Positions 1 to 9,116 of a DNA stretch of 64,000 nucleotides are shown in pieces. Both the position numbers and the translations under genes were made by a program. Under the pieces are notes generated by a model, which was not told the origin of the DNA, searched no databases, and was given only the letters and a program-made list of their open reading frames with translations. This DNA comes from Bacteroidia bacterium. GTDB taxonomy: Bacteria; Bacteroidota; Bacteroidia; CAIKAF01. How positions within the stretch are numbered: position 1 is the first letter of the stretch; each line of letters begins with the position of its first letter. The stretch spans positions 1-64,000 of the forward strand of contig JACVCJ010000008.1 of the NCBI GenBank assembly GCA_016742095.1. The letters are read 5' to 3'.

Positions 1-1433
1 TAGATGTGACCGATACGCTCGATTTTGTGAACTTCGAAAACCCGGTGATCGTTATGTCGGGAGGAAATGTGCAGACCGTGGACGGCTGGGGACGCTACAG
101 CGCGGCTACCCTTTCCGTGGTAACATCGGGCGGCAGCCAGATGCTGGAAGTGACCAGTTCGAACCCAACGCACGGTACGCATAAAGACTTTGCCGTAACG
201 CCTGGCCAGACCTATACGCTCAGCATGAATGTAGACATAGGCACGGCCGGTTCGGTGAACATCATCGTATGGCAGTTCGTAACGACCAGCAGCCTCAGCC
301 TCATGACCCCGGTGCCCTACCTGAACATGGCTTCCAACGGCACCTATACAGTAACGATAACGCCGACCATGCCCAATATTCGTATACAGATGCGTAACGG
401 TACCAGCGGCACCAAAACATTCCGCCTGGACAACATCTTCCTCAGAACTGCCGGCCGTGACCTGGTGGCGGATAAGAGTACGTACCGCTACGGTTACCAG
501 GGCCAGGAACGCGACGATGCCCTGAAAGGCCCCGGTAACTCCCTGAACTTCGGGTTCCGTATGCATGACCCGCGCATCGGCAGGTTCTTTGTGGCAGACC
601 CGCTGGAGGCCAAATATCCGTACAACTCACCCTATGCCTTCAGTGAGAACCGGGTAATGGACGGACTGGAACTTGAAGGCCTGGAACTGTTCCCCATCCA
701 CGGTACCTGGGGTTTTAATGATTCCTGGCTGGACAATAACAATCAGCCTACGCTTACCAACGCTATACAGGACATGTTCGGGAATTCCAGCACCATGATC
801 TTTAAAAACCCCAACCTGAAAGATGGCCGTCGTGACGATGTACATAAACGGCAGTCCTCTGTTGGCTGGACCGGAGCTAACACAGACCGGGCCCGCCGCA
901 GAGCCGCCAAAGACTATTACAAATTCATCAAAGACAATCATGTTCCGGGAGAGCCCATTACCATTGTGGGACACAGTCACGGGGGCAACGTAGGCATTAT
1001 GGTTATGAATATGCTGGCCGCAGATCCTGAATTTAAAGACACCGAACTGAACCTGCTTACCCTGAACACCGTTTCGAGGGAATACCAGCTGTCTGAGGAA
1101 GCGGCCGGCAGGGTGAATCACTATAACATGTATAACCGCAGAGACTTCGTGCAGATCTTCGCCGGAGGCATGCTTTCGGAATTCCTGGGAGACGGCGAGG
1201 AAAAACTGTTCGGAAAGATCCCTACCGGAGAGTTCGGCATAGGACGTCAGAAATTTAAAACGGCCACCAACATTAAAATGAGATCCAATTTCAAGGGGCT
1301 GGAAGGCCAACACCGGAGCTGGCTGGACGGCAACTTCCAGGAATGGCTGCCCAACCTGCAGAAAGCGAAAGAAACAAATGACAAGATAAAACTGGTCGGT
1401 CAGCTGGATAAGATCCTCAACCGGCCACAGTAA
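1..1433 (+). CDS. Rhs-family polymorphic toxin, C-terminal part with lipase-like tip (5' cut by window edge)
   Basis: The reading frame is open to the left edge (first full codon at position 3), so this is the 3' end of a longer gene. Numbering from the GTG at 6: residues 10-150 look like a beta-sandwich carbohydrate-binding module, and 160-225 carry the Rhs-core ending (YRYGYQGQERDD, then DPRIGRFFVADPL and YPYNSPYAFSENR). The remaining 250 residues form a variable tip with GHSHGG (nucleophile elbow, Ser324), NRRDFV (Asp380) and a late QHRSW (His436). That spacing fits an alpha/beta-hydrolase or class 3 lipase-like triad. In known Rhs proteins the variable tip after the core is the toxin; here a phospholipase or esterase activity is inferred. 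No immunity-like gene follows on the same strand. Rhs assignment is sure, enzymatic activity less so. Confidence 0.88.
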   Translation, partial: DVTDTLDFVNFENPVIVMSGGNVQTVDGWGRYSAATLSVVTSGGSQMLEVTSSNPTHGTHKDFAVTPGQTYTLSMNVDIGTAGSVNIIVWQFVTTSSLSLMTPVPYLNMASNGTYTVTITPTMPNIRIQMRNGTSGTKTFRLDNIFLRTAGRDLVADKSTYRYGYQGQERDDALKGPGNSLNFGFRMHDPRIGRFFVADPLEAKYPYNSPYAFSENRVMDGLELEGLELFPIHGTWGFNDSWLDNNNQPTLTNAIQDMFGNSSTMIFKNPNLKDGRRDDVHKRQSSVGWTGANTDRARRRAAKDYYKFIKDNHVPGEPITIVGHSHGGNVGIMVMNMLAADPEFKDTELNLLTLNTVSREYQLSEEAAGRVNHYNMYNRRDFVQIFAGGMLSEFLGDGEEKLFGKIPTGEFGIGRQKFKTATNIKMRSNFKGLEGQHRSWLDGNFQEWLPNLQKAKETNDKIKLVGQLDKILNRPQ

Positions 1434-4513: not shown

Positions 4514-5353
4514 ATGAAACAGAAAAACCGTACCAAAACCGTTCTCATCACCGGGGCGTCCTGCGGCATCGGGCTCGAACTAAGCCGTTTGTTTGCGAAG
4601 GACCATTACAATATGGTGATCGTGGCCCGTAACCACGGACACCTGGAACAGGTAGCCACCGGGTTCAGGCACCTGGGCGCAGCATCCGTACTGTGCATAC
4701 CGGCCGATCTTTCGGTAAGCGGTAATGCGCTGGCCGTGTATAATGAAACCCGTACGCGCGGAATTCACATCGACATACTGGTAAACGATGCCGGTGCCGG
4801 CGAACACGGACTTTTTGCCGAAACAGACCTGCAGCGCGAACTGGGCATCATTCAGCTGAACATTGCTTCGCTGGTGGTACTTACCAAACTGTACCTGCGC
4901 GAAATGCTCGCCCGTAACGAAGGTAAGATCCTGAACCTGGCTTCCATAGCCTCCTACCAGCCAACGCCGCGCCTGGCCGTTTACGCCGCGACCAAAGCTT
5001 TTGTGCTTTCTTTTTCAGATGCACTCAGTTACGAACTCGAAAACACCGGCGTAACCATCACGGCTCTTATACCACCGGCTACGAATACCTCCTTTTTCGA
5101 AAGCGCCGGGGCCGAACATACACGGGCCGCCACCGAAAACCCCGAAGATCCTTCCGTAGTGGCCGATGTAGGCTACGAAGCCCTGATGGCCGGCCGTTAC
5201 CATGCCACCCCTCCGGGCATCCGCCGGCAGATATTCATGAGTTCGATCATGAGTAACCATGCCGTAGCAAGCCGTGCCGCCAAACTGATGGAACCTGCCG
5301 AACCGTTCAAAGACGGTGTAAATACCCGCAACATACCGGTACAGAAACCATAA
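4514..5353 (+). CDS. Short-chain dehydrogenase/reductase
   Basis: A 279-aa classical SDR. The Rossmann cofactor motif is TGASCGIG near residue 14, the NNAG-equivalent is NDAGAGEHG near 90, the catalytic Ser lies in ASIASY, and the Tyr/Lys pair is YAATK near 157-161. The C-terminus has an extra tail ending NIPVQKP. Substrate cannot be inferred. It is transcribed away from the KTSC-like gene and ends at a strong bidirectional hairpin shared with the oxidosqualene cyclase gene. Confidence 0.88.
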   Translation: MKQKNRTKTVLITGASCGIGLELSRLFAKDHYNMVIVARNHGHLEQVATGFRHLGAASVLCIPADLSVSGNALAVYNETRTRGIHIDILVNDAGAGEHGLFAETDLQRELGIIQLNIASLVVLTKLYLREMLARNEGKILNLASIASYQPTPRLAVYAATKAFVLSFSDALSYELENTGVTITALIPPATNTSFFESAGAEHTRAATENPEDPSVVADVGYEALMAGRYHATPPGIRRQIFMSSIMSNHAVASRAAKLMEPAEPFKDGVNTRNIPVQKP

Positions 5354-5462: not shown

Positions 5463-7712
5463 CTATTCCGCCGTCTGCGCTGCATAGCGGTTCAGGGCCC
5501 AGATCGGGAACACGTTGCGGTAGGCCGTGTACGTGATCATACAGTTGTGATTGAAAAGTCCGGAAATGGCTTCCTGCTCCCAGTCGCCGGAGACCAGCTG
5601 TCGTTTTTTAATGAGTTCGATGCCCCGGTCGATCACCGTGCGGTCGGGGTAATTGGCTGCCATAAGCGCCAGCAGGGCCCAGGCGGTATTGATCACCTGG
5701 CCTTCACCGGTGCTCATGTATTCTTTGGTCACGCAGCTTTCGAATCGCTCGCCCCAGCCGCCGTCGGGCAGCTGTTTGGATACCAGGAACAGGCAGGCTT
5801 TGGTAATGGCCGGAGAAGGACCGCCCGGATCGCCATAACGCTTATGTCCGGCCGTGAGCAGACCTTCTACTCCGAACCAGCCGCCGTAACAGAAACATAC
5901 AGCCCAGGAGCCGTAGAACGAACCGTCGGCACGCTGCTTGCGGGCAATGAACTCTCCTCCGCGGCGGATCGCCTTCTTAATTTCTTCGCTGCGGTAATCC
6001 GGGTAATATTTGCTGAAGGTCTTGAGGCCCTGCATACAGGCCGAGCTGCATTCCACGTAGGAATAATCGATCATGATGTTCTCGAACACTTCCGAGGGAT
6101 TCATCTGTTCCAGCCATTTGGGGCCACGCGTGAGCTCGTAGGAAGCCCAGCCGCCGTCTTTGTTCTGGAACGAAAGTACCAGGTCGGCCGCCCCTTTCAG
6201 GCGCCAGTCCTCCAGCGGGGTGATCTCGTCGCGGAGCAGGCTGCTGTTCTGGAGCAGCAGGGCGGTTTTCATGCCTTCGCTGCTGCAGTCGGTAATGGGC
6301 CAGCCGTGTTCCACGGTAGAAAAAGGCCAGCCACACACGGAGGGATGCCGGTAGAACTCCGCCCGGTCGCGCACTTCCTCACGGACCTGCATGGCGTCCA
6401 CGAAAGAGAACATTTTCTTGAGTGCCGGTTTGGCCGCCTGCCGGGTAGCGTCTGTGCCTTCCATCATAGATTGCCCGGCAAACACCACGTCCCAGAGCTG
6501 TGAGCCGTTATAGCCCTGCATTTTCATACCGTCTTCGGCCACCCAGAGATAGTCGCTGCGGCGGTCCAGGTGTTTCTGAAAACGCTCAGAGTCTGCGCCG
6601 TAGGCATGCCATACACAAATGCCGTTAATGGCCTTGTTCACCGGCCCGATATCGATAAAATCCGTATGATCGTCCTCGGCGTCGATATAGGCCAGGACTG
6701 CGTCCAGGGCCTTGCGGCGGAAACGCTTGGGCGGACGTACCTCGTACAGGTTCAGGAATTTATTGGCCAGCTTCAGTACCGGCGGATGCGGGAAGTACAG
6801 ATCTTCCCCGTTGATGGTATTGCGGGCTTTTTTCCAGTCGATCTTCCCGTAGGGTTCTGCATAGATCTCTTCGCGCAGGCTGGCCACCAGGTCGGTGATC
6901 TTACCCACCACCTTGTGCCCGTAGCAATAGGCCATACCCAGGTACACCATGCGGGCATGGCACCAGTAATTACCGGGATGCACGGGCAGCCAGCGCGGCA
7001 GCAGCCAGAACTCGGGGAACAGGCTGTTCATTCCTTTCCATTCGTAAGCGCCCAGTACCGACAGGTAAAATTTACCCCAGGTAGGTATGCTCACGGCACC
7101 GCCATGGCTCTGTATCCAGGAACGGGCACGCTGCATTTCCGGTTCTCCGGGCTGCATACCCATGATACGCAGGGCCACGTACTGCATCACCGTACCGAAC
7201 ATGGTGGACTTGTCCTCGATATGCAGTCCCCAGCCGCCGTCGGCATTCTGCATATTCAGCATATAGCGTTTCATGAGGATCTGCTCTTCTTCGGCAAAAG
7301 GCGTATGGGTAACGTAGGCATTGATCACGATGCCGGGCAGCAGGAACAGGGGGCCACCGTAGTCCGAAGGCCAGTGCCCGTCGTCTTCCTGCAGGCGTGT
7401 GTAAAACTCAATGGCCTTCCGGGAAGCCTCTTCGGCCGTAAGCTGGCCGTTCTCATGCTGTGTGGCCGGCGCTCCCACTTTCGAATTGCGATACACGATA
7501 TCCGCACTGTTGGGATTTTGTGCCTTATTGTATACAAAAGCGTCCGAAAGCGCCTGTTTCAGTTCGCGGCCTTTGGCACTGCGCCAGAAGGCTTCGGCAT
7601 CGGTATAATATTCGGGATACAGGGCCGCATCGGGCTCAAAATGCCAGGTGTGACGTCCCTTGCGGTTTTCCAGTTTCCAGTATTGCTGCAGTATTTCTTT
7701 TTCAGTATTCAC
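5463..7712 (-). CDS. Oxidosqualene cyclase-type triterpene cyclase
   Basis: A 749-aa cyclase; human lanosterol synthase is about 730 aa. The sequence follows eukaryote-type oxidosqualene cyclases: DGHWPSDYGGPLFLLPG at 111-127, WCHAR at 250-254 (matching the sterol-synthase MWCHCR), the acid motif DCSSE at 475-479 (family DCTAE; Asp475 is the predicted proton donor), YVECSS at 552-557 (its Cys hydrogen-bonds that Asp in the human enzyme), and the ending GDWEQEAISG to YRNVFPIWAL. QW repeats lie at 155, 516, 592 and 646. The DxDDTA motif of squalene-hopene cyclase is absent. Predicted reaction: 2,3-oxidosqualene to a 3-hydroxy polycyclic triterpene such as lanosterol, cycloartenol or an arborane; the product cannot be told. 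No squalene monooxygenase gene is in view. It lies downstream of idi and a 66-aa gene, with a terminator-like hairpin between. Confidence 0.95.
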   Translation of the reverse strand: MNTEKEILQQYWKLENRKGRHTWHFEPDAALYPEYYTDAEAFWRSAKGRELKQALSDAFVYNKAQNPNSADIVYRNSKVGAPATQHENGQLTAEEASRKAIEFYTRLQEDDGHWPSDYGGPLFLLPGIVINAYVTHTPFAEEEQILMKRYMLNMQNADGGWGLHIEDKSTMFGTVMQYVALRIMGMQPGEPEMQRARSWIQSHGGAVSIPTWGKFYLSVLGAYEWKGMNSLFPEFWLLPRWLPVHPGNYWCHARMVYLGMAYCYGHKVVGKITDLVASLREEIYAEPYGKIDWKKARNTINGEDLYFPHPPVLKLANKFLNLYEVRPPKRFRRKALDAVLAYIDAEDDHTDFIDIGPVNKAINGICVWHAYGADSERFQKHLDRRSDYLWVAEDGMKMQGYNGSQLWDVVFAGQSMMEGTDATRQAAKPALKKMFSFVDAMQVREEVRDRAEFYRHPSVCGWPFSTVEHGWPITDCSSEGMKTALLLQNSSLLRDEITPLEDWRLKGAADLVLSFQNKDGGWASYELTRGPKWLEQMNPSEVFENIMIDYSYVECSSACMQGLKTFSKYYPDYRSEEIKKAIRRGGEFIARKQRADGSFYGSWAVCFCYGGWFGVEGLLTAGHKRYGDPGGPSPAITKACLFLVSKQLPDGGWGERFESCVTKEYMSTGEGQVINTAWALLALMAANYPDRTVIDRGIELIKKRQLVSGDWEQEAISGLFNHNCMITYTAYRNVFPIWALNRYAAQTAE

Positions 7713-8007: not shown

Positions 8008-9039
8008 TTATTTAATGCGTAAATAGGCTTCGGCCATGCGGTAGGCTTCCAGGCTTTTCTGAATGTAGTTGCGCACGTCCTCGTAACTCTGTGAGGCGCG
8101 TTTCAACAGTTCGTAGGCCTGTCCGTATACCGCGGGCATCTGTAATTTCTGAATGCAGTAAAATCCGTCGGAGAAATTTTTAATACCGCCGGATACGATA
8201 ATATGCTTACACTGAACCTTATCGCCCAGCTTTTCGATGGCCGCATTTACAAGATCGGTCATTTCGAAAGCCGTGTGGCCGGTGTACACCAGCGGTTCGT
8301 AAATTTCGTTGTAGGAATTGCTGTCGCGCAGGCGTTCCAGCAGGGAGAAATTGGTACCTCCGTAGGCTCCAAAGTCCAGCGCGGCGATGGGCAGCTGCAG
8401 CAGGGCCTCGATGCTCTGCGGACCGAACCCCTGTCCCACTTCCTTCACGATCACGGGAAACTTCACATGATCGAGCACGGCCAGGATGGTTTCCATGGGG
8501 GCACGTTTAAAGATATCGCCTTCGGGCTGAAAGAACTCCTGGAAGGGATTTACGTGTACGATGAGCCCGTCGGCCTGGAGGGCGCCTACCAGGTCCACCA
8601 CTTTCTGCAGTTCGTTGTTGTCGATCAGTTCTTCGAGCTGGGCAATACCCAGGTTGGCGAAGAAAGGCGCTTCATTGCCCATTACGGGGCGCAGGTCAAA
8701 ATCGGGGAAGCGTTCACTGCCTTCGAGCAGTACGCGACAGGAACCCAGTCCCATGCCCAGTCCGAATTCGGCACAGGCCCGGGCCAGGTTATGGTTGATC
8801 TTGTACGCGGCTTCGGTCCCCCCGGTCATGGAGCTTACCCAGATGGGCGCCTGCATGGTCTTACCGAGGAAAGAGAAGGGACGTGCCACTGTGGAAGGAT
8901 GCGCGGCAAACAGCGGCTCGTAGTTAAAACGACGGTCCAGCCCGTTACCGGCGGTCTGCGAATTGGCAGCCAGCTCAATGTGTGCCGATTTACGCTCTTC
9001 GCCCTGTTCAATTATATTTACTCCTTTTACGGATGACAT
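8008..9039 (-). CDS. fni: Type 2 isopentenyl-diphosphate delta-isomerase (FMN-dependent)
   Basis: A 343-aa protein with the IDI-2 layout: RKSAHIELA at the N-terminus, WVSSMTGGTE (FMN region) near residue 68, GMGLGSCRVLLE, HVNPFQEFFQPEGD (the HxNxxQE catalytic/Mg region), PVIVKEVGQGF, and the C-terminal IIVSGGIKN with a glycine-rich FMN-phosphate site. IDI-2 interconverts isopentenyl and dimethylallyl diphosphate, the feedstock for squalene. I chose ATG 9039 (MSSVKGVNIIEQGEERKSAH); the ORF extends upstream to a GTG, but that part is Cys-rich and not conserved. It heads a leftward set with the 66-aa gene and probably the cyclase. Confidence 0.92.
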   Translation of the reverse strand: MSSVKGVNIIEQGEERKSAHIELAANSQTAGNGLDRRFNYEPLFAAHPSTVARPFSFLGKTMQAPIWVSSMTGGTEAAYKINHNLARACAEFGLGMGLGSCRVLLEGSERFPDFDLRPVMGNEAPFFANLGIAQLEELIDNNELQKVVDLVGALQADGLIVHVNPFQEFFQPEGDIFKRAPMETILAVLDHVKFPVIVKEVGQGFGPQSIEALLQLPIAALDFGAYGGTNFSLLERLRDSNSYNEIYEPLVYTGHTAFEMTDLVNAAIEKLGDKVQCKHIIVSGGIKNFSDGFYCIQKLQMPAVYGQAYELLKRASQSYEDVRNYIQKSLEAYRMAEAYLRIK

Positions 9040-9116
9040 ATCTGCTTTTAAACAATAACAACAGCTAAGACGCTTCGTATGTACAAATGTTACAGGCACA
9101 AACGAAAAATCCACTG

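What the first reader, a model, noticed from the sequence alone, without database searches (positions are those of the whole stretch)
5463..7712. Eukaryote-type oxidosqualene cyclase in a Bacteroidota genome
Seen: DGHWPSDYGGPLFLLPG, WCHAR, DCSSE, YVECSS and the GDWEQEAISG to FPIWAL ending, each lining up with lanosterol/cycloartenol-type cyclases. The DxDDTA of squalene-hopene cyclase is absent. Known: bacterial oxidosqualene cyclases are rare (Methylococcus, Gemmata, some myxobacteria, and the arborane-making enzyme of the Bacteroidota species Eudoraea adriatica). Inferred: this organism makes a 3-hydroxy triterpene. The acid motif reads DCSSE rather than DCTAE, so the product may differ.
Basis: partly seen in the sequence, partly recalled or inferred. 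Interest (0 to 1): 0.82.

Follow-up and report, generated by a model that had tools for sequence, protein, structure and literature searches.

The report
Probable cycloartenol synthase in uncultured Bacteroidota
This bacterium carries a close relative of the animal and plant enzyme that starts steroid synthesis, plus the two enzymes that supply its substrate, so it can probably make a simple sterol (best guess cycloartenol), as one bacterium of the same phylum is already known to do.

Summary
Window 5463-7712 (-) encodes an intact 749-aa oxidosqualene cyclase (OSC): TIGR01787 683 bits, nearest solved structure human lanosterol synthase (47% identity), aligned catalytic residues kept, no DxDDTA. 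A tree puts it with human and plant OSCs, apart from squalene-hopene cyclases (100/100). No separate hopene cyclase was found in the genome. On another contig lie a eukaryote-type squalene synthase and a squalene epoxidase side by side, so the substrate route is present. Of 16 genomes held from its order, the same 10 have OSC and epoxidase; one genus of six genomes lacks both. In most relatives the three genes form one divergent cluster.

The 'DCSSE' argument is weak: D and C are kept, and the T/A positions drift among relatives. The three positions known to steer product read Tyr/His/Ile, the cycloartenol-synthase triad. No P450 and no ERG24-type reductase were found, so the pathway probably stops at a 4,4,14-trimethyl sterol, most likely cycloartenol, as already shown for the bacteroidete Fluviicola taffensis. 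New member of a known kind; product unproven without GC-MS. In passing: SQS-SQE fusions in a sister genus, and SQE-OSC fusions elsewhere in the phylum (that type already reported).

The parts
5463..7712 (-). Oxidosqualene cyclase, 749 aa, GTG start; most likely a cycloartenol synthase
6276..6290 (-). Acid motif DCSSE, residues 475-479; D475 = human D455 (proton donor), C476 = human C456
   Evidence: alignment with human LSS
6510..6512 (-). Tyr401 = human position 381, first of the cycloartenol triad
   Evidence: rule from PMC5101207 and PMC4919349
6306..6308 (-). His469 = human position 449, second of the triad
6294..6296 (-). Ile473 = human position 453, third of the triad; Ile goes with cycloartenol, Val with lanosterol in the bacterial strains tested in PMC4919349
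7717..7721 (-). GGGAG, likely ribosome-binding site of the cyclase gene
   Evidence: sequence
8008..9114 (-). Type 2 IPP isomerase-like gene upstream on the same strand, about 300 bp away; possibly isoprenoid supply (link to the cyclase inferred only)
   Evidence: TIGR02151 194 bits, below its cut-off of 281

Best explanation
The gene encodes an oxidosqualene cyclase. The organism makes squalene from farnesyl diphosphate with a eukaryote-type squalene synthase, epoxidises it with a squalene epoxidase, and the cyclase protonates the epoxide with Asp475 (human D455) and folds the chain into a 3-beta-hydroxy tetracyclic sterol. The Tyr401/His469/Ile473 triad makes cycloartenol the most likely main product. 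With no P450 and no ERG24-type reductase found, the product is probably left as a 4,4,14-trimethyl sterol and used as such, presumably in the membrane. Shown here: family, tree position, catalytic residues, triad, presence of genes for the two supply enzymes, absence of P450 and ERG24 matches. Inferred: activity, product, membrane role. The confidence is for the whole statement with cycloartenol as main product; for an OSC making some 3-hydroxy triterpene it would be about 0.93.
For: OSC family scores and SHC model far below its cut-off; catalytic residues and triad; tree; fold nearest to human OSC, Z 43.9 against 37.8 for hopene cyclase; SQE and SQS side by side in the same genome with clear matches to solved squalene monooxygenase and squalene synthase; OSC and SQE present in the same 10 of 16 genomes of the order and usually clustered; no P450 and no ERG24 with ringing controls; I453 goes with cycloartenol in all tested bacteria, and F. 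taffensis makes only cycloartenol (PMC4919349).
Against: No enzyme or lipid of this lineage has been tested. The triad rule comes from few bacterial enzymes. Other cavity residues differ (for example Leu719 where human LSS and the other OSCs compared have Val, save Ala in Streptomyces), and the model is of low confidence at 717-726. Genes for Rieske C-4 demethylase, C-24 reductase and ERG25-type enzymes were not searched for, so later modification is not excluded. OSC and SQE can be present without sterol in culture, as in Corallococcus coralloides (PMC4919349).
Confidence: 0.75

Rival explanations
1. An oxidosqualene cyclase whose main product is not cycloartenol but another 3-hydroxy triterpene (lanosterol, parkeol, or a pentacyclic such as the arboranes that Eudoraea is reported to make).
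For: Product cannot be read with certainty from sequence; PMC5101207 notes that triad patterns and products do not map one to one in lanosterol synthases. Leu719 and the two Ser of DCSSE are unusual in the set. A related Bacteroidota genus, Eudoraea, carries an OSC classed as LAS by residue (PMC4919349) that is cited as making arboranes (reference in PMC10070321).
Against: Full Y/H/I triad, which PMC5101207's introduction calls invariable in cycloartenol synthases (one later sentence there prints Y,H,V for CAS, which its other text contradicts); I453 matched cycloartenol in every strain tested.
Confidence: 0.18
2. A squalene-hopene cyclase or other squalene cyclase that works on squalene itself.
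For: Same superfamily and fold.
Against: No DxDDTA, SHC model 242 bits against a cut-off of 431, tree excludes it at 100/100, SQE in the genome and in all OSC-bearing relatives examined.
Confidence: 0.02
3. A contaminant from a eukaryote, or a non-functional relic.
For: Closest solved homologues are eukaryotic. One database relative, L013 in a 'Verrucomicrobiaceae' MAG, looks like such a contaminant because its reading frame is interrupted as by introns.
Against: Uninterrupted ORF with a GGGAG site in a 64-kb stretch of ordinary bacterial genes. GC3 0.71 is at the top of, but within, the range 0.61-0.71 of ten other genes of the genome. Recurs in 10 of 16 genomes of the order and in named Bacteroidetes MAGs. 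Catalytic residues intact.
Confidence: 0.03

Closest known systems
Cycloartenol synthase of Fluviicola taffensis (Fluta_3214), Bacteroidota (PMC4919349, PMC5101207)
   Same: OSC in a bacteroidete, Y/H/I triad, squalene epoxidase in the genome, no downstream sterol genes found by the authors; cells make cycloartenol
   Different: Different lineage; sequence not available here, so identity and common descent were not tested; in most of our lineage the OSC is next to SQS-SQE, while Fluta_3214 and Fluta_3221 (SE) are seven locus tags apart
Human lanosterol synthase (1w6k)
   Same: Fold (Z 43.9), 47% identity, acid motif D/C, catalytic residues
   Different: Triad T/C/V in human, Y/H/I here
Eudoraea adriatica OSC (G504DRAFT_2316), reported to make arboranes
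   Same: OSC with neighbouring SE gene in a bacteroidete (PMC4919349)
   Different: Classed as LAS type by residue in that paper, ours has Ile453; sequence not available here; arborane product known from a cited title only
Bacterial OSC clade with Planktothrix and the SQE-OSC fusion proteins
   Same: OSC with DCTAE, in bacteria, some in the same phylum
   Different: Separate clade (97/89), 32-36% identity, triad A/H/V, fused to SQE and clustered with demethylation genes in the Bacteroidota-phylum cases

Membership tests
Oxidosqualene cyclase | Squalene/oxidosqualene cyclase family score and fold | tested here: met
   TIGR01787 683 vs 322.7 bits; human OSC Z 43.9, 2.3 A over 696 residues
Oxidosqualene cyclase | Acid motif with catalytic Asp and Cys (D455, C456), second Cys (C533), His232 | tested here: met
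   D475, C476, C555, H252
Oxidosqualene cyclase | Groups with known OSCs, not SHCs, in a tree | tested here: met
   100/100 split from SHC; with human and plant OSC 95/97
Oxidosqualene cyclase | Squalene epoxidase in the genome | tested here: met
   C49:64384-65142, 284 bits; match to squalene monooxygenase 6c6n 6e-95
Oxidosqualene cyclase | Turns oxidosqualene into a 3-hydroxy triterpene | not testable with these tools
   needs enzyme assay
Cycloartenol synthase | Tyr, His, Ile at human positions 381, 449, 453 | tested here: met
   Y401, H469, I473; rule
Cycloartenol synthase | Makes cycloartenol | not testable with these tools
   needs GC-MS
Lanosterol synthase | Val at human position 453 | tested here: not met
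   Ile473
Squalene-hopene cyclase | DxDDTA acid motif | tested here: not met
   pattern absent; DCSSE instead
Squalene-hopene cyclase | TIGR01507 score over the curated cut-off | tested here: not met
   241.6 vs 431.1 bits
NCBIfam TIGR03463 osq_cycl (2,3-oxidosqualene cyclase subfamily) | Score over the curated cut-off | tested here: not met
   677.2 vs 851 bits; none of the Bacteroidota OSCs found passes it
Arborane-type OSC (Eudoraea) | Clusters with the Eudoraea enzyme | not tested
   No Eudoraea sequence could be fetched; the only lead is that Eudoraea was classed as LAS by residue, ours has I453

The most novel reading that the evidence does not exclude
A family-level lineage of uncultured Bacteroidota inherits a compact three-gene sterol module (squalene synthase, squalene epoxidase, cyclase) and makes an unmodified cycloartenol-type sterol, or a yet undescribed triterpenol, as its main polycyclic membrane lipid in place of hopanoids: a group of simple-sterol producers so far without any lipid record.
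Probability: 0.3. Interest if true: 0.5.

Novelty: new member of a known kind. Interest (0 to 1): 0.33.

Why it matters
Sterols and their fossil steranes are read as signs of eukaryotes, so each bacterial lineage able to make simple sterols affects that reading. A lineage with a compact gene set of eukaryote-type SQS, SQE and OSC also adds data to the question of who passed sterol synthesis to whom. The principle (cycloartenol in Bacteroidota, OSC genes in several bacterial phyla) is already published, so this is an extension: more taxa, a conserved gene arrangement and a clear product prediction.

Tried and rejected
Two papers (PMC5240688 on Eudoraea arboranes; the 2021 PNAS evolution paper) were not held, and neither Eudoraea nor Fluviicola sequences could be fetched (the one genome-contig scan returned only near relatives). 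Hence no direct tree with product-proven Bacteroidota OSCs. A search for hopene cyclases in the phylum found no true SHC for an outgroup; plasmid-borne SHCs were used instead. DCSSE as a sign of a different product: rejected as unsupported. Contamination: rejected. The ERG24 negative had a silent control, so it was repeated with genomes that carry the family. The one P450 in an OSC-bearing genome of the order (G406) was checked as a possible CYP51: its best solved matches are a putative P450, P450-BM3 and plant LUT5, with no CYP51 named among the 60 shown. Paper searches for OSC with 'Bacteroidota' or Chitinophagales found nothing relevant.

Full report
Observation. It scores 683 bits against the squalene/oxidosqualene cyclase model (cut-off 322.7) and 242 against the squalene-hopene cyclase model (cut-off 431). 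Its best solved relative is human lanosterol synthase (E 2e-210; 47% identity over 649 aligned residues). An AlphaFold model built from the protein and 14 relatives (pLDDT 86.8, pTM 0.89) superposes on human OSC with Z 43.9, 2.3 A over 696 residues; hopene cyclase comes behind at Z 37.8, 606 residues. Residues 542-548 and 717-726 are of low confidence in the model.

Active site. On an alignment of 27 cyclases that includes human LSS, a plant OSC (8j5z) and three SHCs, the human residues Y98, W192, W230, H232, W387, F444, D455, C456, E459, Y503, C533, W581 and F696 are all kept in the window protein. SHCs show DxDDTA at the acid motif; the window protein and the other OSCs do not. The acid D and the C are unchanged; the next two positions read TA, TS, SA and TG among relatives, and AS in the eukaryote-like L013. 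I know of no product rule tied to them. The three known product positions (human 381, 449, 453) read Y401, H469, I473. PMC5101207 gives Y, H, I as the triad of cycloartenol synthases, and PMC4919349 reports that in the bacteria tested I453 went with cycloartenol and V453 with lanosterol. All 16 sequences of the window's lineage and its near MAG relatives have Y381 and I453; two have Q instead of H at 449.

Tree. With 27 cyclases (IQ-TREE, LG+C20 PMSF, 698 columns), SHCs split off at 100/100. A clade of Planktothrix, Streptomyces and the SQE-OSC fusion proteins is separate (97/89), and the window protein lies with its relatives in a group (87/89) next to human LSS (89/86) and then the plant OSC (95/97). 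Branches inside the lineage are weakly resolved and the reference set is small, so the direction of any transfer between eukaryotes and bacteria is left open.

Substrate supply. The same genome (G000, 3.7 Mb, 98.6% complete, 70 contigs) has one squalene epoxidase (284 bits, C49:64384-65142) directly downstream of one squalene synthase (C49:62852-63670). The synthase passes TIGR01559 (435 vs 287 bits) and falls far below the HpnC and HpnD cut-offs; it matches the solved squalene synthase 3vj8 at 2e-93. The epoxidase matches squalene monooxygenase 6c6n at 6e-95, including GDSLNMRHPLTGGGMTVAF. The second SQS_PSY hit, on C31, adjoins a phytoene-desaturase-like gene (sequence) and is below every cut-off including TIGR01559, so I take it for a carotenoid gene. 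The only cyclase of this superfamily found in the genome is the window gene. No P450 was found (controls ring) and no ERG24-type reductase (four genomes of the phylum ring). Rieske C-4 demethylase, C-24 reductase and ERG25-type genes were not searched for.

Distribution. Of 395 genomes sampled across the phylum, five have an OSC: this one and four from two other families listed only as 'same phylum', which carry the other OSC clade. Within the order 16 genomes are held, all of one family with six genera: 10 have the OSC, and the same 10 have the SQE; the six without both are one genus. The match is perfect but may reflect a single loss or gain. All nine genomes behind the loci from genome contigs also hold an SQE.

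Gene order. In L006, L007, L009, L012, L014 and in G395-G398, G406 and G407 the SQS-SQE pair is divergent from the OSC next to it. In the window's genome and in G405 the cyclase is on another contig. In the window it follows an IPP isomerase 2-like gene on the same strand. In L007 an HMG-CoA reductase adjoins SQE, and in G405 a polyprenyl synthetase does. These placements fit a dedicated sterol supply line (inference).

Mechanism, stated as likely: FPP to squalene (SQS), squalene to 2,3-oxidosqualene (SQE, needs oxygen), then protonation by Asp475, cyclisation to the protosteryl cation, shifts and loss of a C19 proton to give cycloartenol (established OSC chemistry, my own knowledge). The last step rests on the triad only. 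Without CYP51 and ERG24 matches the C-14 methyl group should stay. This parallels F. taffensis, for which only cycloartenol was seen and no downstream genes were found (PMC4919349).

Relatives with more. Genomes G392, G301 and G270 of other families carry an SQE-OSC fusion; in G392 it is next to a P450, an ERG4/ERG24 protein, a Rieske protein, a 3-beta-HSD-like protein and a methyltransferase with a Sterol_MT_C domain. Fused SMO/OSC proteins are mentioned in PMC10070321, so the type is known. In genus g176 of the window's own family, SQS and SQE are one chain; I found no report of that, after one paper search only.

Verdict. Observation confirmed; interpretation partly supported; a new member of a known kind. 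It would gain interest if lipid work showed a sterol as the main polycyclic lipid of this family.

Noticed in passing
L046:134-2677:- (847 aa) and L047:615-3152:+ (845 aa): Squalene synthase and squalene epoxidase fused in one reading frame, beside a divergent OSC, in two genomes of one genus of the window's family; the two fusions are 60% identical to each other, so not an assembly slip.
   Followed up: partly
L017:1405-4824:-, L019:37-3462:+, L020:7-3513:+ (neighbourhoods L051-L053): Squalene epoxidase fused to OSC (1139-1168 aa) in other Bacteroidota-phylum genomes; in L051 clustered with P450, ERG4/ERG24, Rieske, 3-beta-HSD-like and sterol methyltransferase genes. Fused SMO/OSC is already mentioned in PMC10070321.
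   Followed up: partly
L013:7695-10250:+: OSC in a 'Verrucomicrobiaceae' MAG whose frame is broken by intron-like inserts with stops: probably a eukaryotic contaminant contig. It reads DCASE with Y, H, I at the triad positions.
   Followed up: partly
L068:2980-7015:+ (Streptomyces sp. YIM 121038 plasmid): A divergent OSC-like protein (33% identity to the window OSC, Cys where the others compared have Phe696) followed by squalene/phytoene synthase and FAD oxidoreductase genes on a linear megaplasmid.
   Followed up: no
window 4514-5353 (+): Short-chain dehydrogenase convergent with the OSC; an SDR 33% identical to it also lies next to the OSC in G408 (L046:5634-6449). SDRs are common, so this may be chance.
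   Followed up: no
window 6-1433 (+): C-terminal part of an RHS-repeat-like protein with a lipase-like GHSHGG stretch at the edge of the window; seen by eye only.
   Followed up: no
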